Part shown: positions 1 to 64,000 of the stretch, piece after piece
Layout of the letters: each line of letters starts with the position of its first letter
How positions within the stretch are numbered: the first letter of the stretch is position 1
DNA from: Utricularia gibba
Taxonomy: Eukaryota > Streptophyta > Magnoliopsida > Lamiales > Lentibulariaceae
Assembly (NCBI GenBank): GCA_002189035.1
Contig: NEEC01000101.1
Coordinates: 53,918 to 117,917, forward strand
Direction of reading: 5' to 3'
DNA: 64,000 nucleotides
Notes under the pieces: generated by a model
The model's input: the letters and a program-made list of their open reading frames with translations, nothing else
Databases searched by the model: none
Told to the model about the DNA's origin: nothing
Position numbers and translations under genes: made by a program

Positions 1-30
1 CCCATAGTCAGTTGTAGCCCGGAAAATAAG
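1..30 (+). repeat. Tail of an E dimer from a unit cut by the left edge
   Basis: The first 30 bases (CCCATAGTCAGTTGTAGCCC and onward) match the 3' end of the E dimers that precede every later A dimer, for example just before 1593 and 3153. The array therefore continues to the left. Confidence 0.95.
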
Positions 31-1592
31 TCATGCATTTATCAACGTTGGGTTTCGGCGGCTGCCTAAATGGTTTTTCAAGCAACAGCTTGCCGTTTTA
101 AGGCGGGTGCTGTCGTTGGCAGCTTTGTACGGGCCCAAGGTTTGGTCTGGCTCCTGAGCCCAATCGGGTCCTACTCGATGAAAATCGTGATGCATTTAAT
201 GAAGTTAGGATGTCATGAGCGCCCCAAATGGTTTTCTCAACAACCTGATTTATATTTGACGAGGTGCTCTAGGCTGGCACTAGTATCGAGCAAATGGTCG
301 AGTCGCGCTCTGGCCCATAGTCATTTGTAGCCCGGCCAAAAAAGTGATGCATTTATTAACGTTGGGTTTTCGGCGGCTGCCTACATGCTTTTTGAGGCAA
401 AAGTTGTCGTTTTTTGGCGGGTGCTGTTGTTGGGAACTTCGTCCGGACCCAAGGTTCGGTCTGACTTCACAGCACAATAAGGTCCCATTCGACGAAAATC
501 GTGATACCTTTATTGCTGTTAGGATCTCATGATTACCCCAAATGCTTTTTTCAACAGCATGCTATACACTTGAGAAGGCGCTTTTGTGGGTCACCGAGAT
601 CGGCCCGGAATTCGGGTCGAGCTCGGGCCCAAAGTCAGCTGTAGCCCGATAAAAGAAGTGATGCATTTATTAACGTTGGGTTGTCGGCGGCTGCCCACAT
701 GGTTTTTCAAGCAACAGCTTGCCGTTTTAAGGCGGGTGCTGTCGTTGACAGCTTTAAGGGCCCAAGGTTTGGTCTGGCTCCTGAGCCCAATCGGGTCCTA
801 CTCGATGAAAATCGTGATGCATTTAATGAAGTTAGGATGTCATGAGCCCCCAAATGGTTTTCTCAACAACCTGATTTATATTTGACGAGGTGCTCTAGGC
901 TGGCACTAGTATCGAGCAAATGGTCGAGTCGCGCTCTGGCCCATAGTCATTTGTAGCCTGGTCAAAAAAGCGATGCATTTATTAACGTTGGGTTTTCGGC
1001 GGCTGCCTACATGCTTTTTGAAGCAAAAGTTGTCGTTTTTTGGCGGGTGCTGTTGGGAACTTCGTCCGGACCCAAGGTTCGGTCTGACTTCACAGCACAA
1101 TAAGGTCCCATTCGACGAAAATCGTGATACCTTTATTGAAGTTAGGATCTCATGACCGCCCCAAATGCTTTTTTCAACAGCATGCTTTAAACTTGAGAAG
1201 GCGCTTTTGTGGGTCACCGAGATCGGGCCGGAATTCAGGTCGGGCTTGGGGACAAAGTCAGCTGTAGCCCGTCAAAAGAAGTGATGCATTTATTAACGTT
1301 GGCTTGTCGCGGCTGCCCACATGGTTTTTAAAGCAACAGCTTGCCGTTTTAAGGCGGGTGCTGTCGTTGGCAGCTTTGTAAGGCCCAAGGTTCGGTCTGG
1401 CTCCTGAGCCCAATCGGGTCCTACTCGATGAAAATCGTGATGCATTTGCTTTTGTTAGGATGTCATGAGAACCCCAATGGGTTTTCTCCACACTCTACTT
1501 TATATTTGAGAAGGCGCTCTCGGGGGTTTAGGGATTGGGCCAGAGGTCGGGTCGGGCTCACGCCCATAGTCAGTTGTAGCCCGGAAAATAAG
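31..1592 (+). repeat. HOR unit 1, pentameric (n=1), 1562 bp
   Basis: The order is A-B-C-D-E. A has the TGTACGGGCCC variant. B and D have GAGGCAAAAG and GAAGCAAAAG rather than the CAAGGAAAAG of the next units. C has GTTGACAGC with three bases lost near 755. E is the long form (GGCTTGTC, TTTTTAAAGC). It resembles the units at 20942 and 31208 more than its right-hand neighbours. Confidence 0.93.
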
Positions 1593-3152
1593 TCATGCAT
1601 TTATCAACGTTGGGTTTTCGGCGGCTGCCTAAATGGTTTTTCAAGCAACAGCTTGCCGTTTTAAGGCGGGTGCTGTCGTTGGCAGCTTTGTAGGGCCCAA
1701 GGTTTGGTCTGGCTCCTGAGCCCAATCGGGTCCTACTCGATGAAAATCGTGATGCATTTAATGAAGTTAGGATGTCATGAGCGCCCCAAATGGTTTTCTC
1801 AACAACCTGATTTATATTTGACGAGGTGCTCTAGGCTGGCACTAGTATCGAGCAAATGGTCGAGTCGCGCTCTGGCCCATAGTCATTTGTAGCCCGGCCA
1901 AAAAAGTGATGCATTTATTAACGTTGGGTTTTCGGCGGCTGCCTACATGCTTTTTCAAGGAAAAGTTGTCGTTTTTTGGCGGGTGCTGTTGTTGGGAACT
2001 TCGTCCGGACCCAAGGTTCGGTCTGACTTCACAGCACAATAAGGTCCCATTCGACGAAAATCGTGATACCTTTATTGCAGTTAGGATCTCATGATTACCC
2101 CAAATGCTTTTTTCAACAGCATGCTATACACTTGAGAAGGCGCTTTTGTGGGTCACCGAGATCGGCCCGGAATTCGGGTCGAGCTCGGGCCCAAAGTCAG
2201 CTGTAGCCCGACAAAAGAAGTGATGCATTTATTAACGTTGGGTTGTCGGCGGCTGCCCACATGGTTTTTCAAGCAACAGCTTGCCGTTTTAAGGCGGGTG
2301 CTGTCGTTGCAGCTTTGTAAGGGCCCAAGGTTTGGTCTGGCTCCTGAGCCCAATCGGGTCCTACTCGATGAAAATCGTGATGCATTTAATGAAGTTAGGA
2401 TGTCATGAGCGCCCCAAATGGTTTTCTCAACAACCTGATTTATATTTGACGAGGTGCTCTAGGCTGGCACTAGTATCGAGCAAATGGTCGAGTCGCGCTC
2501 TGGCCCATAGTCATTTGTAGCCGGCAAAAAAGCGATGCATTTATTAACGTTGGGTTTTCGGCGGCTGCCTACATGCTTTTTCAAGGAAAAGTTGTCGTTT
2601 TTTGGCGGGTGCTGTTGTTGGGAACTTCGTCCGGACCCAAGGTTCGGTCTGACTTCACAGCACAATAAGGTCCCATTCGACGAAAATCGTGATACCTTTA
2701 TTGAAGTTAGGATCTCATGACCGCCCCAAATGCTTTTTTCAACAGCATGCTTTAAACTTGAGAAGGCGCTTTTGTGGGTCACCGAGATCGGGCCGGAATT
2801 CAGGTCGGGCTTGGGGGACAAAGTCAGCTGTAGCCCGTCAAAAGAAGTGATGCATTTATTAACGTTGGTTGTCGGCGGCTGCCCACATTTTTCAAGCAAC
2901 AGCTTGCCGTTTTAAGGCGGGTGCTGTCGTTGGCAGCTTTGTAAGGGCCCAAGGTTCGGCTCCTGAGCCCAATCGGGTCCTACTCGATGAAAATCGTGAT
3001 GCATTTGCTTTTGTTAGGATGTCATGAGAACCCCAATGGGTTTTCTCCACACTCTACTTTATATTTGAGAAGGCGCTCTCGGGGGGTTTAGGGATTGGGC
3101 CAGAGGTCGGGTCGGGCTCACGCCCATAGTCAGTTGTAGCCCGGAAAATAAG
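1593..3152 (+). repeat. HOR unit 2, pentameric (n=1), 1560 bp
   Basis: A-B-C-D-E. A has TGTAGGGCCC (two bases short of the common form). B reads TTGCAGTTAGG. B and D carry CAAGGAAAAG. This is the first unit with the short E form (CCACATTTTTCAAGC, AAGGTTCGGCTCC). Confidence 0.93.
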
Positions 3153-3467
3153 TCATGCATTTATCAACGTTGGGTTTTCGGCGGCTGCCTAAATGGTTTT
3201 TCAAGCAACAGCTTGCCGTTTTAAGGCGGGTGCTGTCGTTGGCAGCTTTGTACGGGCCCAAGGTTTGGTCTGGCTCCTGAGCCCAATCGGGTCCTACTCG
3301 ATGAAAATCGTGATGCATTTAATGAAGTTAGGATGTCATGAGCGCCCCAAATGGTTTTCTCAACAACCTGATTTATATTTGACGAGGTGCTCTAGGCTGG
3401 CACTAGTATCGAGCAAATGGTCGAGTCGCGCTCTGGCCCATAGTCATTTGTAGCCCGGCCAAAAAAG
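3153..3467 (+). repeat. Prototype A dimer (X class, HOR-opening)
   Basis: This opens the clean pentameric unit used as the reference. It has two ~157-bp halves (3153-3310 and 3311-3467). The A signature is TCATGCATTTATCAACG, with CTGCCTAAATGG instead of the CTGCCCACATGG of C and E. The second half carries GCTCTAGGCTGGCACTAG (with a SpeI site) and ends in GTAGCCCGGCC plus an A-run. It follows an E dimer directly, so the E-A join is the only place where two X-class dimers touch. Confidence 0.93.
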
Positions 3468-3781
3468 TGATGCATTTATTAACGTTGGGTTTTCGGCGGC
3501 TGCCTACATGCTTTTTCAAGGAAAAGTTGTCGTTTTTTGGCGGGTGCTGTTGTTGGGAACTTCGTCCGGACCCAAGGTTCGGTCTGACTTCACAGCACAA
3601 TAAGGTCCCATTCGACGAAAATCGTGATACCTTTATTGCTGTTAGGATCTCATGATTACCCCAAATGCTTTTTTCAACAGCATGCTATACACTTGAGAAG
3701 GCGCTTTTGTGGGTCACCGAGATCGGCCCGGAATTCGGGTCGAGCTCGGGCCCAAAGTCAGCTGTAGCCCGACAAAAGAAG
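3468..3781 (+). repeat. Prototype B dimer (Y class)
   Basis: The halves are 3468-3624 and 3625-3781, exactly 157 bp each. Y-class marks are CAAGGAAAAGTTGTCG, TTTTTTGGCGGGTGCTG, CTTCACAGCACAATA and one EcoRI site in the second half. B-specific marks are TTGCTGTTAGGATCTC, CATGATTACCCC, GCTATACACTTG, GGGTCGAGCTCGGGCCC and the ending CCCGACAAAAG or CCCGATAAAAG. Confidence 0.93.
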
Positions 3782-4096
3782 TGATGCATTTATTAACGTT
3801 GGGTTGTCGGCGGCTGCCCACATGGTTTTTCAAGCAACAGCTTGCCGTTTTAAGGCGGGTGCTGTCGTTGGCAGCTTTGTAAGGGCCCAAGGTTTGGTCT
3901 GGCTCCTGAGCCCAATCGGGTCCTACTCGATGAAAATCGTGATGCATTTAATGAAGTTAGGATGTCATGAGCGCCCCAAATGGTTTTCTCAACAACCTGA
4001 TTTATATTTGACGAGGTGCTCTAGGCTGGCACTAGTATCGAGCAAATGGTCGAGTCGCGCTCTGGCCCATAGTCATTTGTAGCCTGGTCAAAAAAG
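3782..4096 (+). repeat. Prototype C dimer (X class)
   Basis: The halves are 3782-3939 and 3940-4096. The first half reads TTGGGTTGTCGGCGGC and CTGCCCACATGG. The second half is nearly the same as that of A, with TTAATGAAGTTAGGATG and the SpeI-containing segment. Together with B it forms the ~625-bp module whose copy number (0 to 3) sets the length of each unit. Confidence 0.92.
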
Positions 4097-4410
4097 TGAT
4101 GCATTTATTAACGTTGGGTTTTCGGCGGCTGCCTACATGCTTTTTCAAGGAAAAGTTGTCGTTTTTTGGCGGGTGCTGTTGTTGGGAACTTCGTCCGGAC
4201 CCAAGGTTCGGTCTGACTTCACAGCACAATAAGGTCCCATTCGACGAAAATCGTGATACCTTTATTGAAGTTAGGATCTCATGACCGCCCCAAATGCTTT
4301 TTTCAACAGCATGCTTTAAACTTGAGAAGGCGCTTTTGTGGGTCACCGAGATCGGGCCGGAATTCAGGTCGGGCTTGGGGACAAAGTCAGCTGTAGCCCG
4401 TCAAAAGAAG
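4097..4410 (+). repeat. Prototype D dimer (Y class, precedes E)
   Basis: The halves are 4097-4253 and 4254-4410. The first half matches B. The second half differs: TTGAAGTTAGGATCTC, CATGACCGCCCC, GCTTTAAACTTG, GAATTCAGGTCGGGCTTG and the ending CCCGTCAAAAG. Confidence 0.92.
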
Positions 4411-4712
4411 TGATGCATTTATTAACGTTGGTTGTCGGCGGCTGCCCACATTTTTTAAAGCAACAGCTTGCCGTTTTAAGGCGGGTGCTGTCGTTGGCAG
4501 CTTTGTAAGGGCCCAAGGTTCGGCTCCTGAGCCCAATCGGGTCCTACTCGATGAAAATCGTGATGCATTTGCTTTTGTTAGGATGTCATGAGAACCCCAA
4601 TGGGTTTTCTCCACACTCTACTTTTATTTGAGAAGGCGCTCTCGGGGGTTTGGATTGGGCCAGAGGTCGGGTCGGGCTCACGCCCATAGTCAGTTGTAGC
4701 CCGGAAAATAAG
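4411..4712 (+). repeat. Prototype E dimer (X class, HOR-closing, short form)
   Basis: The halves are 4411-4560 (150 bp) and 4561-4712 (152 bp), shorter than the other four dimers. The first half lacks a few bases around CCCACATTTTTT and AAGGTTCGGCTCCTGAG (the 'short E' form of the left and 50.8-56 kb regions). The second half is unique to E: TTGCTTTTGTTAGGATG, CTCCACACTCTAC, GGCGCTCTCGGGGGTTT and GGTCGGGTCGGGCTCACGCC. Confidence 0.92.
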
Positions 4713-6274
4713 TCATGCATTTATCAACGTTGGGTTTTCGGCGGCTGCCTAAATGGTTTTTCAAGCAACAGCTTGCCGTTTTAAGGCGGGTGCTGTCGTT
4801 GGCAGCTTTGTAAGGGCCCAAGGTTTGGTCTGGCTCCTGAGCCCAATCGGGTCCTACTCGATGAAAATCGTGATGCATTTAATGAAGTTAGGATGTCATG
4901 AGCGCCCCAAATGGTTTTCTCAACAACCTGATTTATATTTGACGAGGTGCTCTAGGCTGGCACTAGTATCGAGCAAATGGTCGAGTCGCGCTCTGGCCCA
5001 TAGTCATTTGTAGCCCGGCCAAAAAAGTGATGCATTTATTAACGTTGGGTTTTCGGCGGCTGCCTACATGCTTTTTCAAGGAAAAGTTGTCGTTTTTTGG
5101 CGGGTGCTGTTGTTGGGAACTTCGTCCGGACCCAAGGTTCGGTCTGACTTCACAGCACAATAAGGTCCCATTCGACGAAAATCGTGATACCTTTATTGCT
5201 GTTAGGATCTCATGATTACCCCAAATGCTTTTTTCAACAGCATGCTATACACTTGAGAAGGCGCTTTTGTGGGTCACCGAGATCGGCCCGGAATTCGGGT
5301 CGAGCTCGGGCCCAAAGTCAGCTGTAGCCCGATAAAAGAAGTGATGCATTTATTAACGTTGGGTTGTCGGCGGCTGCCCACATGGTTTTTCAAGCAACAG
5401 CTTGCCGTTTTAAGGCGGGTGCTGTCGTTGACAGCTTTGTAAGGGCCCAAGGTTTGGTCTGGCTCCTGAGCCCAATCGGGTCCTACTCGATGAAAATCGT
5501 GATGCATTTAATGAAGTTAGGATGTCATGAGCGCCCCAAATGGTTTTCTCAACAACCTGATTTATATTTGACGAGGTGCTCTAGGCTGGCACTAGTATCG
5601 AGCAAATGGTCGAGTCGCGCTCTGGCCCATAGTCATTTGTAGCCCGGCCAAAAAAGTGATGCATTTATTAACGTTGGGTTTTCGGCGGCTGCCTACATGC
5701 TTTTTCAAGGAAAAGTTGTCGTTTTTTGGCGGGTGCTGTTGTTGGGAACTTCGTCCGGACCCAAGGTTCGGTCTGACTTCACAGCACAATAAGGTCCCAT
5801 TCGACGAAAATCGTGATACCTTTATTGAAGTTAGGATCTCATGACCGCCCCAAATGCTTTTTTCAACAGCATGCTTTAAACTTGAGAAGGCGCTTTTGTG
5901 GGTCACCGAGATCGGGCCGGAATTCAGGTCGGGCTTGGGGGACAAAGTCAGCTGTAGCCCGTCAAAAGAAGTGATGCATTTATTAACGTTGGTTGTCGGC
6001 GGCTGCCCACATTTTCAAGCAACAGCTTGCCGTTTTAAGGCGGGTGCTGTCGTTGGCAGCTTTGTAAGGGCCCAAGGTTCGGCTCTCCTGAGCCCAATCG
6101 GGTCCTACTCGATGAAAATCGTGATGCATTTGCTTTTGTTAGGATGTCATGAGAACCCCAATGGGTTTTCTCCACACTCTACTTTATATTTGAGAAGGCG
6201 CTCTCGGGGGTTTGGGATTGGGCCAGAGGTCGGTCGGGCTCACGCCCATAGTCAGTTGTAGCCCGGAAAATAAG
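4713..6274 (+). repeat. HOR unit 4, pentameric (n=1), 1562 bp
   Basis: A-B-C-D-E with TGTAAGGGCCC in A, CCCGATAAAAG closing B and GTTGACAGC in C. E is short form with CCCACATTTTCAAGC and AAGGTTCGGCTCTCCTG. Confidence 0.93.
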
Positions 6275-8453
6275 TCATGCATTTATCAACGTTGGGTTTT
6301 CGGCGGCTGCCTAAATGGTTTTTCAAGCAACAGCTTGCCGTTTTAAGGCGGGTGCTGTCGTTGGCAGCTTTGTAAGGGCCCAAGGTTTGGTCTGGCTCCT
6401 GAGCCCAATCGGGTCCTACTCGATGAAAATCGTGATGCATTTAATGAAGTTAGGATGTCATGAGCGCCCCAAATGGTTTTCTCAACAACCTGATTTATAT
6501 TTGACGAGGTGCTCTAGGCTGGCACTAGTATCGAGCAAATGGTCGAGTCGCGCTCTGGCCCATAGTCATTTGTAGCCCGGCCAAAAAAGTGATGCATTTA
6601 TTAACGTTGGGTTTTCGGCGGCTGCCTACATGCTTTTTCAAGGAAAAGTTGTCGTTTTTTGGCGGGTGCTGTTGTTGGGAACTTCGTCCGGACCCAAGGT
6701 TCGGTCTGACTTCACAGCACAATAAGGTCCCATTCGACGAAAATCGTGATACCTTTATTGCTGTTAGGATCTCATGATTACCCCAAATGCTTTTTTCAAC
6801 AGCATGCTATACACTTGAGAAGGCGCTTTTGTGGGTCACCGAGATCGGCCCGGAATTCGGGTCGAGCTCGGGCCCAAAGTCAGCTGTAGCCCGATAAAAG
6901 AAGTGATGCATTTATTAACGTTGGGTTGTCGGCGGCTGCCCACATGGTTTTTCAAGCAACAGCTTGCCGTTTTAAGGCGGGTGCTGTCGTTGGCAGCTTT
7001 GTAAGGGCCCAAGGTTTGGTCTGGCTCCTGAGCCCAATCGGGTCCTACTCGATGAAAATCGTGATGCATTTAATGAAGTTAGGATGTCATGAGCGCCCAA
7101 ATGGTTTTCTCAACAACCTGATTTTTATTGACGAGGTGCTTTAGCTGGCTCTAGTATCGAGCAAATGGTCGAGTCGCGCTCTGGCCCATAGTCATTTTTA
7201 GCCCGGCAAAAAAGTGATGCATTTATTAACGTTGGGTTTTCGGCGGCTGCCTACATGCTTTTTCAAGGAAAAGTTGTCGTTTTTTGGCGGGTGCTGTTGT
7301 TGGGAACTTCGTCCGGACCCAAGGTTCGGTCTGACTTCACAGCACAATAAGGTCCCATTCGACGAAAATCGTGATACCTTTATTGAAGTTAGGATCTCAT
7401 GATTACCCCAAATGCTTTTTTCAACAGCATGCTATACACTTGAGAAGGCGCTTTTGTGGGTCACCGAGATCGGCCCGGAATTCGGGTCGAGCTCGGGCCC
7501 AAAGTCAGCTGTAGCCCGAAAAGAAGTGATGCATTTATTAACGTTGGGTTGTCGGCGGCTGCCCACATGGTTTTTCAAGCAACAGCTTGCCGTTTTAAGG
7601 CGGGTGCTGTCGTTGGCAGCTTTGTAAGGGCCCAAGGTTGGTCTGGCTCCTGAGCCCAATCGGGTCCTACTCGATGAAAATCGTGATGCATTTAATGAAG
7701 TTAGGATGTCATGAGCGCCCCAAATGGTTTTCTCAACAACCTGATTTATATTTGACGAGGTGCTCTAGGCTGGCACTAGTATCGAGCAAATGGTCGAGTC
7801 GCGCTCTGGCCCATAGTCATTTGTAGCCTGGCAAAAAAGCGATGCATTTATTAACGTTGGGTTTTCGGCGGCTGCCTACATGCTTTTTCAAGGAAAAGTT
7901 GTCGTTTTTTGGCGGGTGCTGTTGTTGGGAACTTCGTCCGGACCCAAGGTTCGGTCTGACTTCACAGCACAATAAGGTCCCATTCGACGAAAATCGTGAT
8001 ACCTTTATTGAAGTTAGGATCTCATGACCGCCCCAAATGCTTTTTTCAACAGCATGCTTTAAACTTGAGAAGGCGCTTTTGTGGGTCACCGAGATCGGGC
8101 CGGAATTCAGGTCGGGCTTGGGGACAAAGTCAGCTGTAGCCCGTCAAAAGAAGTGATGCATTTATTAACGTTGGGTTGTCGGCGGCTGCCCACATTTTCA
8201 AGCAACACTTGCCGTTTTAAGGCGGTGCTGTCGTTGGCAGCTTTGTAAGGGCCCAAGGTTCGGCTCCTGAGCCCAATGGGTCCTACTCGATGAAAATCGT
8301 GATGCATTTGCTTTTGTTAGGATGTCATGAGAACCCCAATGGGTTTTCTCCACACTCTACTTTATATTTGAGAAGGCGCTCTCGGGGTTTTGGGATTGGG
8401 CCAGAGGTCGGGTCGGGCTCACGCCCATAGTCAGTTGTAGCCCGGAAAATAAG
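6275..8453 (+). repeat. HOR unit 5, heptameric (n=2), 2179 bp
   Basis: The order is A-B-C-Y-C-D-E. The first C (from about 6908) switches in its second half to GATTTTTATTGACGAGG and CATTTTTAGCCC, forms otherwise typical of 41.5-50.5 kb. The extra Y (from about 7216) mixes D-like TTGAAGTTAGG with B-like GATTACCCC and ends CCCGAAAAGAAG. Confidence 0.92.
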
Positions 8454-10012
8454 TCATGCATTTATCAACGTTGGGTTTTCGGCGGCTGCCTAAATGGTTT
8501 TTCAAGCAACAGCTTGCCGTTTTAAGGCGGGTGCTGTCGTTGGCAGCTTTGTAAGGGCCCAAGGTTTGGTCTGGCTCCTGAGCCCAATCGGGTCCTACTC
8601 GATGAAAATCGTGATGCATTTAATGAAGTTAGGATGTCATGAGCGCCCCAAATGGTTTTCTCAACAACCTGATTTATATTTGACGAGGTGCTCTAGGCTG
8701 GCACTAGTATCGAGCAAATGGTCGAGTCGCGCTCTGGCCCATAGTCATTTGTAGCCCGGCCAAAAAAGTGATGCATTTATTAACGTTGGGTTTTCGGCGG
8801 CTGCCTACATGCTTTTTCAAGGAAAAGTTGTCGTTTTTTGGCGGGTGCTGTTGTTGGGAACTTCGTCCGGACCCAAGGTTCGGTCTGACTTCACAGCACA
8901 ATAGGTCCCATTCGACGAAAATCGTGATACCTTTATTGCTGTTAGGATCTCATGATTACCCCAAATGCTTTTTTCAACAGCATGCTATACACTTGAGAAG
9001 GCGCTTTTGTGGGTCACCGAGATCGGCCGGAATTCGGGTCGAGCTCGGGCCCAAAGTCAGCTGTAGCCCGATAAAAGAAGTGATGCATTTATTAACGTTG
9101 GGTTGTCGGCGGCTGCCCACATGGTTTTTCAAGCAACAGCTTGCCGTTTTAAGGCGGGTGCTGTCGTTGGCAGCTTTGTAAGGGCCCAAGGTTGGTCTGG
9201 CTCCTGAGCCCAATCGGGTCCTACTCGATGAAAATCGTGATGCATTTAATGAAGTTAGGATGTCATGAGCGCCCCAAATGGTTTTCTCAACAACCTGATT
9301 TATATTTGACGAGGTGCTCTAGGCTGGCACTAGTATCGAGCAAATGGTCGAGTCGCGCTCTGGCCCATAGTCATTTGTAGCCCGGCCAAAAAAGTGATGC
9401 ATTTATTAACGTTGGGTTTTCGGCGGCTGCCTACATGCTTTTTCAAGGAAAAGTTGTCGTTTTTTGGCGGGTGCTGTTGTTGGGAACTTCGTCCGGACCC
9501 AAGGTTCGGTCTGACTTCACAGCACAATAAGGTCCCATTCGACGAAAATCGTGATACCTTTATTGAAGTTAGGATCTCATGACCGCCCCAAATGCTTTTT
9601 TCAACAGCATGCTTTAAACTTGAGAAGGCGCTTTTGTGGGTCACCGAGATCGGGCCGGAATTCAGGTCGGGCTTGGGGACAAAGTCAGCTGTAGCCCGTC
9701 AAAAGAAGTGATGCATTTATTAACGTTGGGTTGTCGGCGGCTGCCCACATTTTCAAGCAACAGCTTGCCGTTTTAAGGCGGGTGCTGTCGTTGGCAGCTT
9801 TGTAAGGGCCCAAGGTTCGGCTCCTGAGCCCAATCGGGTCCTACTCGATGAAAATCGTGATGCATTTGCTTTTGTTAGGATGTCATGAGAACCCCAATGG
9901 GTTTTCTCCACACTCTACTTTATATTTGAGAAGGCGCTCTCGGGGGGTTTTGGATTGGGCCAGAGGTCGGGTCGGGCTCACGCCCATAGTCAGTTGTAGC
10001 CCGGAAAATAAG
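8454..10012 (+). repeat. HOR unit 6, pentameric (n=1), 1559 bp
   Basis: A-B-C-D-E with the short E form. This is the first unit of the left copy of the repeated 5-7-9-7-3-3-3-3-5 size series. Confidence 0.92.
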
Positions 10013-12198
10013 TCATGCATTTATCAACGTTGGGTTTTCGGCGGCTGCCTAAATGGTTTTTCAAGCAACAGCTTGCCGTTTTAAGGCGGGTGCTGTCGTT
10101 GGCAGCTTTGTAAGGGCCCAAGGTTTGGTCTGGCTCCTGAGCCCAATCGGGTCCTACTCGATGAAAATCGTGATGCATTTAATGAAGTTAGGATGTCATG
10201 AGCGCCCCAAATGGTTTTCTCAACAACCTGATTTATATTTGACGAGGTGCTCTAGGCTGGCACTAGTATCGAGCAAATGGTCGAGTCGCGCTCTGGCCCA
10301 TAGTCATTTGTAGCCCGGCCAAAAAAGTGATGCATTTATTAACGTTGGGTTTTCGGCGGCTGCCTACATGCTTTTTCAAGGAAAAGTTGTCGTTTTTTGG
10401 CGGGTGCTGTTGTTGGGAACTTCGTCCGGACCCAAGGTTCGGTCTGACTTCACAGCACAATAAGGTCCCATTCGACGAAAATCGTGATACCTTTATTGCT
10501 GTTAGGATCTCATGATTACCCCAAATGCTTTTTTCAACAGCATGCTATACACTTGAGAAGGCGCTTTTGTGGGTCACCGAGATCGGCCCGGAATTCGGGT
10601 CGAGCTCGGGCCCAAAGTCAGCTGTAGCCCGATAAAAGAAGTGATGCATTTATTAACGTTGGGTTGTCGGCGGCTGCCCACATGGTTTTTCAAGCAACAG
10701 CTTGCCGTTTTAAGGCGGGTGCTGTCGTTGGCAGCTTTGTAAGGGCCCAAGGTTTGGTCTGGCTCCTGAGCCCAATCGGGTCCTACTCGATGAAAATCGT
10801 GATGCATTTAATGAAGTTAGGATGTCATGAGCGCCCCAAATGGTTTTCTCAACAACCTGATTTTTATTCGACGAGGTGCTTTAAGCTGGCTCTAGTATCG
10901 AGCAAATGGTCGAGTCGCGCTCTGGCCCATAGTCATTTTTAGCCCGGCAAAAAAGTGATGCATTTATTAACGTTGGGTTTTCGGCGGCTGCCTACATGCT
11001 TTTTCAAAAAGTTGTCGTTTTTTGGCGGGTGCTGTTGTTGGGAACTTCGTCCGGACCCAAGGTTCGGTCTGACTTCACAGCACAATAAGGTCCCATTCGA
11101 CGAAAATCGTGATACCTTTATTGCAGTTAGGATCTCATGATTACCCCAAATGCTTTTTTCAACAGCATGCTATACACTTGAGAAGGCGCTTTTGTGGGTC
11201 ACCGAGATCGGCCGGAATTCGGGTCGAGCTCGGGCCCAAAGTCAGCTGTAGCCCGATAAAAGAAGTGATGCATTTATTAACGTTGGGTTGTCGGCGGCTG
11301 CCCACATGGTTTTTCAAGCAACAGCTTGCCGTTTTAAGGCGGGTGCTGTCGTTGGCAGCTTTGTAAGGGCCCAAGGTTTGGTCTGGCTCCTGAGCCCAAT
11401 CGGGTCCTACTCGATGAAAATCGTGATGCATTTAATGAAGTTAGGATGTCATGAGCGCCCCAAATGGTTTTCTCAACAACCTGATTTATATTTGACGAGG
11501 TGCTCTAGGCTGGCACTAGTATCGAGCAAATGGTCGAGTCGCGCTCTGGCCCATAGTCATTTGTAGCCCGGCCAAAAAAGTGATGCATTTATTAACGTTG
11601 GGTTTTCGGCGGCTGCCTACATGCTTTTTCAAGGAAAAGTTGTCGTTTTTTGGCGGGTGCTGTTGTTGGGAACTTCGTCCGGACCCAAGGTTCGGTCTGA
11701 CTTCACAGCACAATAAGGTCCCATTCGACGAAAATCGTGATACCTTTATTGAAGTTAGGATCTCATGACCGCCCCAAATGCTTTTTTCAACAGCATGCTT
11801 TAAACTTGAGAAGGCGCTTTTGTGGGTCACCGAGATCGGGCCGGAATTCAGGTCGGCTTGGGGGACAAAGTCAGCTGTAGCCCGTCAAAAGAAGTGATGC
11901 ATTTATTAACGTTGGGTTGTCGGCGGCTGCCCACATTTTCAAGCAACAGCTTGCCGTTTTAAGGCGGGTGCTGTCGTTGGCAGCTTTGTAAGGGCCCAAG
12001 GTTCGGCTCCTGAGCCCAATCGGGTCCTACTCGATGAAAATCGTGATGCATTTGCTTTTGTTAGGATGTCATGAGAACCCCAATGGGTTTTCTCCACACT
12101 CTACTTTATATTTGAGAAGGCGCTCTCGGGGGTTTTGGGATTGGGCCAGAGGTCGGGTCGGGCTCACGCCCATAGTCAGTTGTAGCCCGGAAAATAAG
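10013..12198 (+). repeat. HOR unit 7, heptameric (n=2), 2186 bp
   Basis: A-B-C-B-C-D-E. The first C carries the GATTTTTATTCGACGAGG, TTTAAGCTGGCTCTAG and CATTTTTAGCCC variants (10859-10947). The second Y has lost a few bases at about 11005 (TTTTTCAAAAAGTTG). Confidence 0.92.
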
Positions 12199-53294: not shown

Positions 53295-56096
53295 TCATGC
53301 ATTTATCAACGTTGGGTTTTCGGCGGCTGCCTAAATGGTTTTTCAAGCAACAGCTTGCCGTTTTAAGGCGGGTGCTGTCGTTGGCAGCTTTGTAAGGGCC
53401 CAAGGTTTGGTCTGGCTCCTGAGCCCAATCGGGTCCTACTCGATGAAAATCGTGATGCATTTAATGAAGTTAGGATGTCATGAGCGCCCAAATGGTTTTC
53501 TCAACAACCTGATTTATATTTGACGAGGTGCTCTAGGCTGGCACTAGTATCGAGCAAATGGTCGAGTCGCGCTCTGGCCCATAGTCATTTGTAGCCCGGC
53601 CAAAAAAGTGATGCATTTATTAACGTTGGGTTTTCGGCGGCTGCCTACATGCTTTTTCAAGGAAAAGTTGTCGTTTTTTGGCGGGTGCTGTTGTTGGGAA
53701 CTTCGTCCGGACCCAAGGTTCGGTCTGACTTCACAGCACAATAAGGTCCCATTCGACGAAAATCGTGATACCTTTATTGCTGTTAGGATCTCATGATTAC
53801 CCCAAATGCTTTTTTCAACAGCATGCTATAAACTTGAGAAGGCGCTTTTGTGGGTCACCGAGATCGGCCCGGAATTCGGGTCGAGCTCGGGCCCAAAGTC
53901 AGCTGTAGCCCGATAAAAGAAGTGATGCATTTATTAACGTTGGGTTGTCGGCGGCTGCCCACATGGTTTTTCAAGCAACAGCTTGCCGTTTTAAGGCGGG
54001 TGCTGTCGTTGGCAGCTTTGTAAGGGCCCAAGGTTTGGTCTGGCTCCTGAGCCCAATCGGGTCCTACTCGATGAAAATCGTGATGCATTTAATGAAGTTA
54101 GGATGTCATGAGCGCCCCAAATGGTTTTCTCAACAACCTGATTTATATTTGACGAGGTGCTCTAGGCTGGCACTAGTATCGAGCAAATGGTCGAGTCGCG
54201 CTCTGGCCCATAGTCATTTGTAGCCCGGCAAAAAAGTGATGCATTTATTAACGTTGGGTTTTCGGCGGCTGCCTACATGCTTTTTCAAGAAAAGTTGTCG
54301 TTTTTTGGCGGGTGCTGTTGTTGGGAACTTCGTCCGGACCCAAGGTTCGGTCTGACTTCACAGCACAATAAGGTCCCATTCGACGAAAATCGTGATACCT
54401 TTATTGAAGTTAGGATCTCATGACCCCAAATGCTTTTTTCAACAGCATGCTTAACTTGAGAAGGCGCTTTTGTGGGTCACCGAGATCGGCCGGAATTCGG
54501 GTCGAGCTCGGGCCCAAAGTCAGCTGTAGCCCGTAAAAGAAGTGATGCATTTATTAACGTTGGGTTGTCGGCGGCTGCCCACATGGTTTTTCAAGCAACA
54601 GCTTGCCGTTTTAAGGCGGGTGCTGTCGTTGGCAGCTTTGTAAGGGCCCAAGGTTTGGTCTGGCTCCTGAGCCCAATCGGGTCCTACTCGATGAAAATCG
54701 TGATGCATTTAATGAAGTTAGGATGTCATGAGCGCCCCAAATGGTTTTCTCAACAACCTGATTTATATTTGACGAGGTGCTCTAGGCTGGCACTAGTATC
54801 GAGCAAAGGTCGAGTCGCGCTCTGGCCCATAGTCATTTGTAGCCCGGCAAAAAAGTGATGCATTTATTAACGTTGGGTTTTCGGCGGCTGCCTACATGCT
54901 TTTTCAAGGAAAAGTTGTCGTTTTTTGGCGGGTGCTGTTGTTGGGAACTTCGTCCGGACCCAAGGTTCGGTCTGACTTCACAGCACAATAAGGTCCCATT
55001 CGACGAAAATCGTGATACCTTTATTGCTGTTAGGATCTCATGACCCCAAATGCTTTTTTCAACAGCATGCTATACACTTGAGAAGGCGCTTTTGTGGGTC
55101 ACCGAGATCGGCCGGAATTCGGGTCGCTCGGGCCAAAGTCAGCTGTAGCCCGATAAAAGAAGTGATGCATTTATTAACGTTGGGTTGTCGGCGGCTGCCC
55201 ACATGGTTTTTCAAGCAACAGCTTGCCGTTTTAAGGCGGGTGCTGTCGTTGGCAGCTTTGTAAGGGCCCAAGGTTTGGTCTGGCTCCTGAGCCCAATCGG
55301 GTCCTACTCGATGAAAATCGTGATGCATTTAATGAAGTTAGGATGTCATGAGCGCCCCAAATGGTTTTCTCAACAACCTGATTTATATTTGACGAGGTGC
55401 TCTAGGCTGGCACTAGTATCGAGCAAATGGTCGAGTCGCGCTCTGCCCATAGTCATTTGTAGCCCGGCCAAAAAAGTGATGCATTTATTAACGTTGGGTT
55501 TTCGGCGGCTGCCTACATGCTTTTTCAAGGAAAAGTTGTCGTTTTTTGGCGGGTGCTGTTGTTGGGAACTTCGTCCGGACCCAAGGTTCGGTCTGACTTC
55601 ACAGCACAATAAGGTCCCATTCGACGAAAATCGTGATACCTTTATTGAAGTTAGGATCTCATGACCGCCCAAATGCTTTTTTCAACAGCATGCTTTAAAC
55701 TTGAGAAGGCGCTTTTGTGGGTCACCGAGATCGGGCCGGAATTCAGGTCGGGCTTGGGGGACAAAGTCAGCTGTAGCCCGTCAAAAGAAGTGATGCATTT
55801 ATTAACGTTGGTTGTCGGCGCTGCCCACATGGTTTTTCAAGCAACAGCTTGCCGTTTTAAGGCGGGTGCTGTCGTTGGCAGCTTTGTAAGGGCCCAAGGT
55901 TCGGTCTCCTGAGCCCAATCGGGTCCTACTCGATGAAAATCGTGATGCATTTGCTTTTGTTAGGATGTCATGAGAACCCAATGGGTTTTCTCCACACTCT
56001 ACTTTATATTTGAGAAGGCGCTCTCGGGGGTTTTGGGATTGGGCCAGAGGTCGGGTCGGGCTCACGCCCATAGTCAGTTGTAGCCCGGAAAATAAG
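53295..56096 (+). repeat. HOR unit 36, nonameric (n=3), 2802 bp
   Basis: The second nine-dimer unit. Y dimers start near 53609, 54239, 54856 and 55479, with GCTGTT, GAAGTT, GCTGTT, GAAGTT in order, as in the unit at 12199. Confidence 0.92.
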
Positions 56097-58246
56097 TCAT
56101 GCATTTATCAACGTTGGGTTTTCGGCGGCTGCCTAAATGGTTTTTCAAGCAACAGCTTGCCGTTTTAAGGCGGGTGCTGTCGTTGGCAGCTTTGTAAGGG
56201 CCCAAGGTTTGGTCTGGCTCCTGAGCCCAATCGGGTCCTACTCGATGAAAATCGTGATGCATTTAATGAAGTTAGGATGTCATGAGCGCCCCAAATGGTT
56301 TTCTCAACAACCTGATTTATATTTGACGAGGTGCTCTAGGCTGGCACTAGTATCGAGCAAATGGTCGAGTCGCGCTCTGGCCCATAGTCATTTGTAGCCC
56401 GGCCAAAAAAGTGATGCATTTATTAACGTTGGGTTTTCGGCGGCTGCCTACATGCTTTTTCAAGGAAAAGTTGTCGTTTTTTGGCGGTGCTGTTGTTGGG
56501 AACTTCGTCCGGACCCAAGGTTCGGTCTGACTTCACAGCACAATAAGGTCCCATTCGACGAAAATCGTGATACCTTTATTGCTGTTAGGATCTCATGATT
56601 ACCCCAAATGCTTTTTTCAACAGCATGCTATAACTTGAGAAGGCGCTTTTGTGGGTCACCGAGATCGGCCCGGAATTCGGGTCGAGCTCGGGCCCAAAGT
56701 CAGCTGTAGCCCGATAAAAGAAGTGATGCATTTATTAACGTTGGGTTGTCGGCGGCTGCCCACATGGTTTTTCAAGCAACAGCTTGCCGTTTTAAGGCGG
56801 GTGCTGTCGTTGGCAGCTTTGTAAGGGCCCAAGGTTTGTCTGGCTCCTGAGCCCAATCGGGTCCTACTCGATGAAAATCGTGATGCATTTAATGAAGTTA
56901 GGATGTCATGAGCGCCCCAAATGGTTTCCAACAACCTGATTTATATTTGACGAGGTGCTCTAGGCTGGCACTAGTATCGAGCAAATGGTCGAGTCGCGCT
57001 CTGGCCCATAGTCATTTGTAGCCCGGCAAAAAAAGTGATGCATTTATTAACGTTGGGTTTTCGGCGCTGCCTACATGCTTTTTCAAGCAAAAGTTGTCGT
57101 TTTTTGGGGGTGCTGTTGTTGGGAACTTCGTCCGGACCCAAGGTTCGGTCTGACTTCACAGCACAATAAGGTCCCATTCGACGAAAATCGTGATACCTTT
57201 ATTGAAGTTAGGATCTCATGACCCCAAATGCTTTTTTCAACAGCATGCTTTAACTTGAGAAGGCGCTTTTGTGGGTCACCGAGATCGGGCCGGAATTCGG
57301 GTCGGGCTTGGGGACAAAGTCAGCTGTAGCCCGTCAAAAGAAGTGATGCATTTATTAACGTTGGGTTGTCGGCGGCTGCCCACATGGTTTTTCAAGCAAC
57401 AGCTTGCCGTTTTAAGGCGGGTGCTGTCGTTGGCAGCTTTGTAAGGGCCAAAGGTTTGGTCTGGCTCCTGAGCCTCGGTCCTACTCGATGAAAATCGTGA
57501 TGCATTTAATGAAGTTAGGATGTCATGAGCGCCCCAAATGGTTTTCTCAACAACCTGATTTATATTTGACGAGGTGCTCTAGGCTGGCACTAGTATCGAG
57601 CAAATGGTCGAGTCGCGCTCTGGCCCATAGTCATTTGTAGCCGGCCAAAAAAGTGATGCATTTATTAACGTTGGGTTTTCGGCGGCTGCCTACATGCTTT
57701 TTGAAGCAAAAGTTGTCGTTTTTTGGCGGTGCTGTTGTTGTGGGAACTTCGTCCGGACCCAAGGTTCGGTCTGACTTCACAGCACAATAAGGTCCCATTC
57801 GACGAAAATCGTGATACCTTTATTGAAGTTAGGATCTCATGACCGCCCCAAATGCTTTTTTCAACAGCATGCTTTAAACTTGAGAAGGCGCTTTTGTGGG
57901 TCACCGAGATCGGGCCGGAATTCGGTCGGGCTCGGGGACAAAGTCAGCTGTAGCCCGTCAAAAGAAGTGATGCATTTATTAACGTTGGCTTGTCGGCGGC
58001 TGCCCACATGGTTTTTCAAGCAACAGCTTGCCGTTTTAAGGCGGGTGCTGTCGTTGGCAGCTTTGTAAGGGCCCAAGGTTCGGTCTGGCTCCTGAGCCCA
58101 ATCGGGTCCTACTCGATGAAAATCGTGATGCATTTGCTTTTGTTAGGATGTCATGAGAACCAATGGGGAGAAGGCGCTCTCGGGGGTTTAGGGATTGGGC
58201 CAGAGGTCGGGTCGGGCTCATAGTCAGTTGTAGCCCGGAAAATAAG
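56097..58246 (+). repeat. HOR unit 37, heptameric (n=2), 2150 bp
   Basis: A-B-C-Y-C-D-E. It shares CAAGGTTTGTCTGG in the first C, a D-like ending of the second Y before C, and a shortened GGGCCA run in the second C with the unit at 15009. E has lost about 27 bases at 58167 and the second C about 5 at 57474. Confidence 0.91.
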
Positions 58247-59171
58247 TCATGCATTTATCAACGTTGGCGAAATGGTTTTTCAAGCAACAGCTTGCCGTTT
58301 TAAGGCGGGTGCTGTCGTTGGCAGCTTTGTAGGGCCCAAGGTTTGGTCTGGCTCCTGAGCCCAATCGGGTCCTACTCGATGAAAATCGTGATGCATTTAA
58401 TGAAGTTAGGATGTCATGAGCGCCCCAAATGGTTTTCTCAACAACCTGATTTATATTTGACGAGGTGCTCTAGGCTGGCACTAGTATCGAGCAAATGGTC
58501 GAGTCGCGCTCTGGCCCATAGTCATTTGTAGCCTGGCAAAAAAGTGATGCATTTATTAACGTTGGGTTTTCGGCGGCTGCCTACATGCTTTTTGAAGCAA
58601 AAGTTGTCGTTTTTTGGCGGGTGCTGTTGTTGGGAACTTCGTCCGGACCCAAGGTTCGGTCTGACTTCACAGCACAATAAGGTCCCATTCGACGAAAATC
58701 GTGATACCTTTATTGAAGTTAGGATCTCATGACCGCCCCAAATGCTTTTTTCAACAGCATGCTTTAAACTTGAGAAGGCGCTTTTGTGGGTCACCGAGAT
58801 CGGGCCGGAATTCAGGTCGGGCTTGGGGGACAAAGTCAGCTGTAGCCCGTCAAAAGAAGTGATGCATTTATTAACGTTGGCTTGTCGGCGGCTGCCCATG
58901 GTTTTTAAAGCAACAGCTTGCCGTTTTAAGGCGGGTGCTGTCGTTGGCAGCTTTGTAAGGGCCCAAGGTTCGGTCTGGCTCCTGAGCCCAATCGGGTCCT
59001 ACTCGATGAAAATCGTGATGCATTTGCTTTTGTTAGGATGTCATGAGAACCCCAATGGTTTTTCTCCACACTCTACTTTATATTTGAGAAGGCGCTCTCG
59101 GGGGGTTTAGGGATTGGGCCAGAGGTCGGGTCGGGCTCACGCCCATAGTCAGTTGTAGCCCGGAAAATAAG
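58247..59171 (+). repeat. HOR unit 38, trimeric (n=0), 925 bp
   Basis: A-D-E. A has TGTAGGGCCC as in unit 10, and has lost about 17 bases near 58267 (ACGTTGGCGAAATGG), including most of the CGGCGGCTGCCT segment. Y has GAAGCAAAAG. Confidence 0.92.
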
Positions 59172-60061
59172 TCATGCATTTATCAACGTTGGGTTTTCGG
59201 CGGCTGCCTAAATGGTTTTTCAAGCAACAGCTTGCCGTTTTAAGGCGGGTGCTGTCGTTGGCAGCTTTGTACGGGCCCAAGGTTTGGTCTGGCTCCTGAG
59301 CCCAATCGGGTCCTACTCGATGAAAATCGTGATGCATTTAATGAAGTTAGGATGTCATGAGCGCCCCAAATGGTTTTCTCAACAACCTGATTTATATTTG
59401 ACGAGGTGCTCTAGGCTGGCACTAGTATCGAGCAAATGGTCGAGTCGCGCTCTGGCCCATAGTCATTTGTAGCCCGGCCAAAAAAGTGATGCATTTATTA
59501 ACGTTGGGTTTTCGGCGGCTGCCTACATGCTTTTTGAGGCAAAAGTTGTCGTTTTTTGGCGGGTGCTGTTGTTGGGAACTTCGTCCGGACCCAAGGTTCG
59601 GTCTGACTTCACAGCACAATAAGGTCCCATTCGACGAAAATCGTGATACCTTTATTGAAGTTAGGGATCTCATGAGCTTTTTCAACAGCAACTTTGAGAA
59701 GGCGCTTTTGTGGGTCACCGAGATCGGGCCGGAATTCGGGTCGGCTTGGGGACAAAGTCAGCTGTAGCCCGTCAAAAGAAGTGATGCATTTATTAACGTT
59801 GGTTGTCGGCGCTGCCCACATGGTTTTTCAAGCAACAGCTTGCCGTTTTAAGGCGGGTGCTGTCGTTGGCAGCTTTGTAAGGGCCCAAGGTTCGGTCTGG
59901 CTCCTGAGCCCAATCGGGTCCTACTCGATGAAAATCGTGATGCATTTGCTTTTGTTAAACACTCTACTTTATATTTGAGAAGGCGCTCTCGGGGGTTTAG
60001 GGATTGGGCCAGAGGTCGGGTCGGGCTCACGCCCATAGTCAGTTGTAGCCCGGAAAATAAG
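59172..60061 (+). repeat. HOR unit 39, trimeric (n=0), 890 bp
   Basis: A-D-E, the shortest unit in the window. The Y dimer (GAGGCAAAAG) has losses at 59674-59693. E has lost about 30 bases at 59957 (TTTTGTTAAACACTC). Confidence 0.92.
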
Positions 60062-60996
60062 TCATGCATTTATCAACGTTGGGTTTTCGGCGGCTGCCTA
60101 AATGGTTTTTCAAGCAACAGCTTGCCGTTTTAAGGCGGGTGCTGTCGTTGGCAGCTTTGTACGGGCCCAAGGTTTGGTCTGGCTCCTGAGCCCAATCGGG
60201 TCCTACTCGATGAAAATCGTGATGCATTTAATGAAGTTAGGATGTCATGAGCGCCCCAAATGGTTTTCTCAACAACCTGATTTATATTTGACGAGGTGCT
60301 CTAGGCTGGCACTAGTATCGAGCAAATGGTCGAGTCGCGCTCTGGCCCATAGTCATTTGTAGCCTGGCAAAAAAGCGATGCATTTATTAACGTTGGGTTT
60401 TCGGCGGCTGCCTACATGCTTTTTGAAGCAAAAGTTGTCGTTTTTTGGCGGGTGCTGTGTTGGGAACTTCGTCCGGACCCAAGGTTCGGTCTGACTTCAC
60501 AGCACAATAAGGTCCCATTCGACGAAAATCGTGATACCTTTATTGAAGTTAGGATCTCATGACCCCAAATGCTTTTTTCAACAGCATGCTTTAAACTTGA
60601 GAAGGCGCTTTTGTGGGTCACCGAGATCGGGCCGGAATTCAGGTCGGGCTTGGGGGACAAAGTCAGCTGTAGCCCGTCAAAAGAAGTGATGCATTTATTA
60701 ACGTTGGCTTGTCGGCGGCTGCCCACATGGTTTTAAAGCAACAGCTTGCCGTTTTAAGGCGGGTGCTGTCGTTGGCAGCTTTGTAAGGGCCCAAGGTTCG
60801 GTCTGGCTCCTGAGCCCAATCGGGTCCTACTCGATGAAAATCGTGATGCATTTGCTTTTGTTAGGATGTCATGAGAACCCAATGGGTTTTCTCCACACTC
60901 TACTTTATATTTGAGAAGGCTCTCGGGGGGTTTAGGGATTGGGCCAGAGGTCGGGTCGGGCTCACGCCCATAGTCAGTTGTAGCCCGGAAAATAAG
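60062..60996 (+). repeat. HOR unit 40, trimeric (n=0), 935 bp
   Basis: A-D-E with TGTACGGGCCC, GAAGCAAAAG and long-form E. Confidence 0.93.
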
Positions 60997-61938
60997 TCAT
61001 GCATTTATCAACGTTGGGTTTTCGGCGGCTGCCTAAATGGTTTTTCAAGCAACAGCTTGCCGTTTTAAGGCGGGTGCTGTCGTTGGCAGCTTTGTACGGG
61101 CCCAAGGTTTGGTCTGGCTCCTGAGCCCAATCGGGTCCTACTCGATGAAAATCGTGATGCATTTAATGAAGTTAGGATGTCATGAGCGCCCCAAATGGTT
61201 TTCTCAACAACCTGATTTATATTTGACGAGGTGCTCTAGGCTGGCACTAGTATCGAGCAAATGGTCGAGTCGCGCTCTGGCCCATAGTCATTTGTAGCCC
61301 GGCCAAAAAAGTGATGCATTTATTAACGTTGGGTTTTCGGCGGCTGCCTACATGCTTTTTGAGGCAAAAGTTGTCGTTTTTTGGCGGGTGCTGTTGTTGG
61401 GAACTTCGTCCGGACCCAAGGTTCGGTCTGACTTCACAGCACAATAAGGTCCCATTCGACGAAAATCGTGATACCTTTATTGAAGTTAGGATCTCATGAC
61501 CGCCCCAAATGCTTTTTTCAACAGCATGCTTTAAACTTGAGAAGGCGCTTTTGTGGGTCACCGAGATCGGGCCGGAATTCAGGTCGGCTTGGGGGACAAA
61601 GTCAGCTGTAGCCCGTCAAAAGAAGTGATGCATTTATTAACGTTGGCTTGTCGGCGGCTGCCCACATGGTTTTTAAAGCAACAGCTTGCCGTTTTAAGGC
61701 GGGTGCTGTCGTTGGCAGCTTTGTAAGGGCCCAAGGTTCGGTCTGGCTCCTGAGCCCAATCGGGTCCTACTCGATGAAAATCGTGATGCATTTGCTTTTG
61801 TTAGGATGTCATGAGAACCCCAATGGGTTTTCTCCACACTCTACTTTATATTTGAGAAGGCGCTCTCGGGGGTTTAGGGATTGGGCCAGAGGTCGGGTCG
61901 GGCTCACGCCCATAGTCAGTTGTAGCCCGGAAAATAAG
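60997..61938 (+). repeat. HOR unit 41, trimeric (n=0), 942 bp
   Basis: A-D-E with TGTACGGGCCC, GAGGCAAAAG and long-form E, matching unit 13 in these variants. Confidence 0.93.
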
Positions 61939-63498
61939 TCATGCATTTATCAACGTTGGGTTTTCGGCGGCTGCCTAAATGGTTTTTCAAGCAACAGCTT
62001 GCCGTTTTAAGGCGGGTGCTGTCGTTGGCAGCTTTGTACGGGCCCAAGGTTTGGTCTGGCTCCTGAGCCCAATCGGGTCCTACTCGATGAAAATCGTGAT
62101 GCATTTAATGAAGTTAGGATGTCATGAGCGCCCCAAATGGTTTTCTCAACAACCTGATTTATATTTGACGAGGTGCTCTAGGCTGGCACTAGTATCGAGC
62201 AAATGGTCGAGTCGCGCTCTGGCCCATAGTCATTTGTAGCCCGGCCAAAAAAGTGATGCATTTATTAACGTTGGGTTTTCGGCGGCTGCCTACATGCTTT
62301 TTGAAGCAAAAGTTGTCGTTTTTTGGCGGGTGCTGTTGTTGGGAACTTCGTCCGGACCCAAGGTTCGGTCTGACTTCACAGCACAATAAGGTCCCATTCG
62401 ACGAAAATCGTGATACCTTTATTGGTTAGGATCTCATGACCCAAATGCTTTTTTCAACAGCATGCTATACACTTGAGAAGGCGCTTTGTGGGTCACCGAG
62501 ATCGGCCCGGAATTCGGGTCGAGCTCGGGCCCAAAGTCAGCTGTAGCCCGATAAAAGAAGTGATGCATTTATTAACGTTGGGTTGTCGGCGGCTGCCCAC
62601 ATGGTTTTTCAAGCAACAGCTTGCCGTTTTAAGGCGGGTGCTGTCGTTGGCAGCTTTGTAAGGGCCCAAGGTTTGTCTGGCTCCTGAGCCCAATCGGGTC
62701 CTACTCGATGAAAATCGTGATGCATTTAATGAAGTTAGGATGTCATGAGCGCCCCAAATGGTTTTCTCAACAACCTGATTTATATTTGACGAGGTGCTCT
62801 AGGCTGGCACTAGTATCGAGCAAATGGTCGAGTCGCGCTCTGGCCCATAGTCATTTGTAGCCTGGCAAAAAAGCGATGCATTTATTAACGTTGGGTTTTC
62901 GGCGGCTGCCTACATGCTTTTTGAAGCAAAAGTTGTCGTTTTTTGGCGGGTGCTGTTGTTGGGAACTTCGTCCGGACCCAAGGTTCGGTCTGACTTCACA
63001 GCACAATAAGGTCCCATTCGACGAAAATCGTGATACCTTTATTGAAGTTAGGATCTCATGACCGCCCCAAATGCTTTTTTCAACAGCATGCTTTAAACTT
63101 GAGAAGGCGCTTTTGTGGGTCACCGAGATCGGGCCGGAATTCGGTCGGGCTTGGGGACAAAGTCAGCTGTAGCCCGTCAAAAGAAGTGATGCATTTATTA
63201 ACGTTGGCTTGTCGGCGGCTGCCCACATGGTTTTTAAAGCAACAGCTTGCCGTTTTAAGGCGGGTGCTGTCGTTGGCAGCTTTGTAAGGGCCCAAGGTTC
63301 GGTCTGGCTCCTGAGCCAATCGGGTCCTACTCGATGAAAATCGTGATGCATTTGCTTTTGTTAGGATGTCATGAGAACCCCAATGGTTTTTTCTCCACAC
63401 TCTACTTTATATTGAGAAGGCGCTCTCGGGGGTTTAGGGATTGGGCCAGAGGTCGGGTCGGGCTCACGCCCATAGTCAGTTGTAGCCCGGAAAATAAG
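61939..63498 (+). repeat. HOR unit 42, pentameric (n=1), 1560 bp
   Basis: A-B-C-D-E with GAAGCAAAAG in both Y dimers, TTGGTTAGG in B and CAAGGTTTGTCTGG in C. It ends the right copy of the size series. Confidence 0.92.
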
Positions 63499-64000
63499 TC
63501 ATGCATTTATCAACGTTGGGTTTTCGGCGGCTGCCTAAATGGTTTTCAAGCAACAGCTTGCCGTTTTAAGGCGGGTGCTGTCGTTGGCAGCTTTGTACGG
63601 GCCCAAGGTTTGGTCTGGCTCCTGAGCCCAATCGGGTCCTACTCGATGAAAATCGTGATGCATTTAATGAAGTTAGGATGTCATGAGCGCCCCAAATGGT
63701 TTTCTCAACAACCTGATTTATATTTGACGAGGTGCTCTAGGCTGGCACTAGTATCGAGCAAATGGTCGAGTCGCGCTCTGGCCCATAGTCATTTGTAGCC
63801 CGGCCAAAAAAGTGATGCATTTATTAACGTTGGGTTTTCGGCGGCTGCCTACATGCTTTTTGAAGCAAAAGTTGTCGTTTTTTGGCGGGTGCTGTTGTTG
63901 GGAACTTCGTCCGGACCCAAGGTTCGGTCTGACTTCACAGCACAATAAGGTCCCATTCGACGAAAATCGTGATACCTTTATTGAAGTTAGGATCTCATGA
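63499..64000 (+). repeat. Partial HOR unit 43 cut by the right edge
   Basis: A complete A dimer (TGTACGGGCCC form) is followed by a Y dimer with GAAGCAAAAG and TTGAAGTTAGG. The window ends within its second half, so the array continues to the right. The dimer number cannot be known. Confidence 0.94.

What the first reader, a model, noticed from the sequence alone, without database searches (positions are those of the whole stretch)
31..63498. Odd-number rule: every HOR unit follows A-(B-C)n-D-E with n = 0, 1, 2 or 3
All 42 complete units contain 3, 5, 7 or 9 dimers, never an even number. X and Y dimers alternate strictly, and the only X-X contact is the E-A join. No Y-Y contact was seen. The observed counts are n=0:17, n=1:13, n=2:10, n=3:2. 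The pattern suggests length changes happen by adding or removing whole ~625-bp B-C modules, as expected from unequal exchange restricted to well-matched X-X or Y-Y registers. The alternative, exchange between X and Y, would have left even-sized units. I know of HOR size polymorphism in other satellites, but such a simple one-parameter rule is notable.
Basis: seen in the sequence. Interest (0 to 1): 0.75.

Follow-up and report, generated by a model that had tools for sequence, protein, structure and literature searches.

The report
Nested repeat in bladderwort satellite DNA
The window is one long plant satellite array in which repeat units always have an odd number of building blocks; this is real but ordinary, because a four-monomer block repeats a variable number of times beside one two-monomer block, as in human nested centromere repeats, and sister arrays of the same plant break the rule.

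Summary
Independent segmentation gives 42 complete units, with n = 0:17, 1:13, 2:10, 3:2 and no X-X, Y-Y, X-E or E-Y join. The finer claim A-(B-C)n-D-E holds for 35 of 42 units; six adjacent units at about 41-50 kb and one at about 57 kb are recombinants or ambiguous.

At monomer level (~157 bp) the array is (1-2-3-4)k(1-5): a 625-bp tetramer P repeated k times, then a 313-bp dimer Q. Counting dimers from E to E must then give 2k+1, so oddness restates "one Q per unit". What needs explaining is the lack of exchange between monomer 1 and 3, or 2 and 4. Homology suffices: cross-class identity tracts reach only 24-27 bp in the consensus, same-class tracts 60-250 bp.

Outside the window the rule is local. 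k runs from 0 to at least 11, and pure P runs exceed 20 copies. Contigs C47 and C443 carry another repeat containing a class-3/class-1 hybrid that removed exactly one dimer.

Human centromeres 5, 15 and 1 have the same kind of one-parameter local-nested HOR. Verdict: a new member of a known kind. The genome is a bladderwort, probably Utricularia gibba.

The parts
1..64000 (+). Satellite array, grammar (1-2-3-4)k(1-5); right end of contig C452 (117,917 bp), which is satellite throughout
6..63473 (+). The 42 complete units: k=1 x17, k=2 x13, k=3 x10, k=4 x2
6..1566 (+). Example unit A-B-C-D-E (k=2)
16232..16390 (+). Recombinant class-1 monomer: E-type 5' part, C-type 3' part, followed by monomer 2
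41475..49560 (+). Domain of mosaic units: B-type Y end, then a C-type/E-type hybrid class-1 monomer, then monomer 5 (hybrids at 41475, 42413, 44568, 45508, 47066, 49246)
57318..57475 (+). Recombinant class-1 monomer in unit ABCDCDE: D-type Y tail, E-type 5' part, C-type 3' part, then monomer 2; the other product type of an X-E exchange

Best explanation
This is a local-nested higher-order repeat of a ~157-bp plant satellite. The basic repeat is a tetramer P (monomers 1-2-3-4, 625 bp). Some domains also carry a dimer Q (monomers 1-5, 313 bp). Shown: every unit of the window is P repeated k times plus one Q. Inferred: k changes by unequal homologous exchange (or recombination-mediated deletion or duplication) between monomers of the same class. 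Exchange within classes 1, 2, 3, 4 or 5, including E with X through shared monomer 1, only adds or removes whole P or Q blocks, so the dimer count between Q blocks stays odd. Breaking the rule needs a 1x3 or 2x4 exchange. These pairs are about 81% and 69% identical with exact tracts of at most 24-27 bp in the consensus, so such exchanges are rare, but one was captured and amplified in the C47-type arrays. No selection or special machinery is needed. The organism is a bladderwort, most likely Utricularia gibba.
For: Strict grammar in the window and in seven other contigs: 2030 allowed and 21 disallowed monomer transitions, the disallowed ones mostly short broken fragments. Forbidden joins in the genome: X-X/X-E 1, Y-Y 0, E-Y 0 exact matches, against 1001 X-Y joins. 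Identity between class pairs 1-1, 2-2, 3-3, 4-4, 5-5: 0.94, 0.98, 0.97, 0.93, 0.93; 1-3: 0.81; 2-4: 0.69. Grammar-breaking share of exact tracts is 0.8% at 30 bp or more and 0 at 50 bp or more. Both product types of X-E exchange occur: D tail, E 5', C 3', then 2: 43 copies; B tail, C/c 5', E 3', then 5: 26 copies. k is spatially clustered: 41 equal neighbours in C452 against 26.6 expected, p=0.0002, as local homogenisation predicts. All 61 changes of k between clean neighbouring units keep the parity. Dimer C fits an E/A hybrid at 3 edits, against 9 from A and 39 from E. C47 position 11 fits a 3|1 hybrid at 1 edit, against 26, 5 and 16 for whole monomers.
Against: Exchange was never observed in progress; segment deletion, duplication or gene conversion could leave the same patterns. 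The assembly appears to be long-read CLR-type with many small indels, so unit order beyond read length and small deletions are uncertain. Copies of a recombinant are not independent events.
Confidence: 0.87

Rival explanations
1. Selection or chromatin constraint: alternation of X and Y is kept because a bound protein or nucleosome phasing needs it, and even-sized units are removed.
For: Alternation is very strict in this array; human dimeric alpha families also alternate regularly (PMC4496801).
Against: Homology alone accounts for it. Related arrays C47 and C443 flourish with E-E contacts and X-E* units, and C99 has E-E. No CENP-B-box-like match was found in the window.
Confidence: 0.05
2. 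Founder effect only: one or a few recent amplifications spread an array that already had this grammar, and there has been little recombination since.
For: Long runs of near-identical k=2 units in C452 and C133; k is clustered.
Against: k differs between neighbours at least 61 times in the contigs read, and recombinant class-1 monomers of both product types are present, so many length changes happened and none of the clean ones changed parity.
Confidence: 0.06
3. Assembly artefact: collapse or mis-joining in the assembly produced the unit-size pattern.
For: Many small indels; contigs are wholly repeat and apparently unplaced.
Against: Units are 0.9-2.8 kb, shorter than the 10-kb mean subread reported for the U. 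gibba assembly (PMC5793159); the same grammar appears in at least seven contigs. Mis-joins would create forbidden junctions rather than remove them.
Confidence: 0.02

Closest known systems
Human CEN5 (D5Z2, SF1) local-nested HOR 1-2-3-4-5-6-1-7-(1-2-3-8)xn, n=1,2,3 (PMC10053651)
   Same: A fixed frame with a tetramer module repeated n times; unit length set by one integer; hybrid monomers in the array; a shared monomer (1) starts both parts.
   Different: 171-bp human alpha satellite with a documented active centromere; unrelated sequence; centromere role of the present array is unknown.
Human CEN15 local-nested HOR 1-2-3-4-5-(6-7-8-9)xn-10-11, and CEN1 D1Z7 dimer amplification (PMC10053651)
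   Same: Internal module of a HOR amplified in whole copies.
   Different: Different satellite and module composition.
Human SF1/SF2 dimeric alpha satellite with J1J2 or D1D2 alternation (PMC4496801)
   Same: Two diverged classes alternate regularly, so size steps come in whole periods; occasional breaches such as D1D1 in D18Z2, and hybrid monomers.
   Different: Alternation is at monomer level; here at dimer level plus an extra dimer E.
Human cenX hybrid monomers such as K+F, ascribed to deletion between two monomers (PMC8336445)
   Same: Hybrid monomers at deletion junctions, like C = E/A and the C47 monomer 3|1.
   Different: There they are relatively infrequent variants; here a hybrid is fixed in a whole array type.

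Membership tests
Higher-order repeat (HOR) of a satellite | Tandem monomers diverged within a unit, units much more alike than the monomers | tested here: met
   Same-class monomers 93-98% identical; the different classes compared 68-81%
Local-nested HOR (LN-HOR, PMC10053651) | A sub-unit of the HOR is tandemly amplified in variable copy number within units | tested here: met
   (1234)k(1-5), k=1-4 in the window and 0-11 elsewhere
Centromeric satellite | Bound by CENH3 or located at primary constrictions | not testable with these tools
   No ChIP or FISH data; contigs are not placed on chromosomes here
Human alpha satellite | 171-bp monomer, CENP-B box in part of the monomers | tested here: not met
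   157-bp monomer; no CENP-B-box-like match in the window; named only as an analogue
Utricularia genome | Two contiguous cysteines in COX1 (reported for Utricularia and some Genlisea, PMC3141634) | tested here: met
   C515 COX1 exon reads LLLLCCSALVEVG
U. gibba PacBio assembly | About 101 Mb, 581 contigs, N50 3.4 Mb (PMC5793159, PMC6265445) | tested here: inconclusive
   G000 has 100.09 Mb in 516 contigs; size fits, contig number differs; N50 not measured

The most novel reading that the evidence does not exclude
The satellite family acts as a natural record of how much sequence identity recombination in a plant satellite needs: cross-class exchange through a 24-27-bp tract happened rarely enough to leave one amplified product (C47 type), while same-class exchange through longer tracts happened many times. 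In addition, a genome whose putative centromeres were described as lacking satellite repeats carries roughly 0.9 Mb or more of an HOR satellite on mostly short contigs, which could include centromeric arrays.
Probability: 0.3. Interest if true: 0.55.

Novelty: new member of a known kind. Interest (0 to 1): 0.3.

Why it matters
It shows that the local-nested HOR form known from human centromeres also occurs in a minimal plant genome, and that a strict parity rule needs no special mechanism beyond recombination between well-matched monomers. The parity-breaking hybrid in sister arrays brackets the homology length below which exchange becomes rare. If the arrays prove centromeric, they would revise the statement that U. 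gibba centromeres lack satellites.

Tried and rejected
Treating the odd number as an independent regularity was rejected: with E as delimiter and P as a two-dimer block, oddness follows from one Q per unit. A bound n of 3 was rejected: k reaches 11 between Q blocks, and pure P runs exceed 20. Apparent 1-to-3 hybrids on C452 were not counted: the exact match at window ~44898 lies among class-1 monomers mixing C-type and A-type sites, and single matches at C452:9315 and C99 can be one substitution (not examined base by base). A whole-genome DNA search with a 1.5-kb query failed because the repeat is too abundant. A literature search for in-register length variants gave nothing. Looking for published primers to name the species gave no sequence.

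Full report
What is there. The window is the last 64,000 bases of contig C452 (117,917 bp) of a 100.09-Mb assembly in 516 contigs. It contains nothing but a ~157-bp satellite organised as ~314-bp dimers. Anchor cutting gives 205 dimers; clustering without prior labels gives three groups of 81, 82 and 42, and their order is strictly (XY)kE.

Subtypes. A-(B-C)n-D-E is followed by 35 of 42 units. Seven deviate or are ambiguous: six adjacent units at about 41-50 kb, where B-type rather than D-type Y precedes E, and ABCDCDE at about 57 kb. Diagnostic sites show that A/C/E differ mainly in the first part of monomer 1, and B/D mainly in the second half of Y; the first-half B/D site varies independently of position. 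Subtypes therefore mark the junctions.

Monomer grammar. X = 1-2, Y = 3-4, E = 1-5. The array is (1-2-3-4)k(1-5). The non-trivial fact is the absence of exchanges that would put 1 where 3 should be, or 2 where 4 should be.

Beyond the window. The first 54 kb of C452 and parts of C99, C133, C435, C174, C92, C113 and C437 were segmented: 2030 allowed transitions and 21 disallowed, mostly short damaged fragments, with the densest cluster in C437 and none in the window. k ranges from 0 (Q-Q in C99) to 11 (C92) between Q blocks; C99 begins with over 20 P blocks without Q. Genome-wide exact joins: X-X/X-E 1, Y-Y 0, E-Y 0, X-Y 1001, E-specific 169. Scaling by X-Y density gives roughly 0.94 Mb of satellite in the assembly.

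Why parity is kept. Identity by class pair: 1-1 0.94, 2-2 0.98, 3-3 0.97, 4-4 0.93, 5-5 0.93, 1-3 0.81, 2-4 0.69. The longest exact consensus tract is 249 bp for A-C, 63 bp for C-E and A-E, 134 bp for B-D, and 24-27 bp between X or E and Y. Of all exact tracts between window dimers, 1-3 and 2-4 make up 18% at 25 bp or more, 0.8% at 30 or more, and none at 50 or more. If exchange usually needs more than about 27 bp of identity, the rule follows. E-X exchange through monomer 1 is allowed and seen: 43 copies with D tail, E 5', C 3', then 2, and 26 with B tail, C/c 5', E 3', then 5. Dimer C is best matched by an E/A hybrid at 3 edits, consistent with a module junction formed by losing one Q; the direction (P first or Q first) is not settled. 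k is clustered along C452 (p = 0.0002).

Where the rule fails. C47 carries a 14-monomer repeat, X-Y-E-E-X-E*-E, about 2183 bp long. The first monomer of E* starts as class 3 and continues as class 1; a hybrid of positions 3 and 5 fits it with 1 edit, against 26 and 5 for the whole monomers, with the crossover in the shared tract near AAGTGATGCATTTATTAACGTTGGGTT. This is the Y-E exchange that removes exactly one dimer. A 3.7-kb piece of C443 shows the same parts in units X-E*-E, X-Y-E and X-Y-E-E. The hybrid's signature is found 61 times, on C47, C109, C440-C443, C511 and a few others, with spacings of 3 to 9 dimers, even and odd. Counted strictly from E to E with E* as an E, X-E* is a two-dimer unit; if E* is called a Y, the unit is odd but the one-dimer deletion remains.

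Organism. A COX1 exon on C515 reads LLLLCCSALVEVG; two contiguous cysteines are reported for Utricularia and some Genlisea (PMC3141634). Size fits the U. gibba long-read assembly (about 101 Mb, N50 3.4 Mb, 581 contigs; PMC5793159, PMC6265445), though the contig number differs. Utricularia is likely; the species is probable.

Known kind. Human CEN5 has 1-2-3-4-5-6-1-7-(1-2-3-8)xn with n = 1, 2, 3, CEN15 has (6-7-8-9)xn, and CEN1 has dimer expansions (PMC10053651). SF1 and SF2 alternate regularly (PMC4496801). Hybrid monomers from deletions are described in cenX (PMC8336445). The present array is a plant member of this kind. I found no description of this satellite in the papers held; the main U. 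gibba genome paper was not found in the library searches.

Limits. The assembly appears to be CLR-based with many small indels. Centromere function, time and direction of the changes, and whether events were crossovers, deletions or conversions cannot be told here.

Noticed in passing
C47:8001-18000 (L030), C443:40100-43800 (L032): A second, 14-monomer HOR type (X-Y-E-E-X-E*-E) of the same satellite with a fixed class-3/class-1 hybrid monomer; hybrid signature on at least seven contigs.
   Followed up: partly
whole assembly; C452, C99, C133, C47 and others: Roughly 0.9 Mb of HOR satellite lies on mostly short contigs, while PMC8333044 states that the putative centromeric regions of U. gibba lack satellite repeats.
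   Followed up: partly
C515:183547-185854 (L031): COX1 with contiguous cysteines and a gap of about 960 nt between model positions 210 and 211, probably a group I intron (from memory).
   Followed up: partly
C460:868830 and C491:32725: Single hits of the hybrid-monomer signature; C460 is a long contig and could place the satellite on a chromosome.
   Followed up: no
window 41475-49560: Domain of adjacent mosaic units in which the usual A and D subtypes are replaced by C/B types.
   Followed up: yes
window, e.g. 58141-58200 and 59941-59990: Scattered deletions of 10-40 bp, often in monomer 5; real or consensus errors of the assembly.
   Followed up: no
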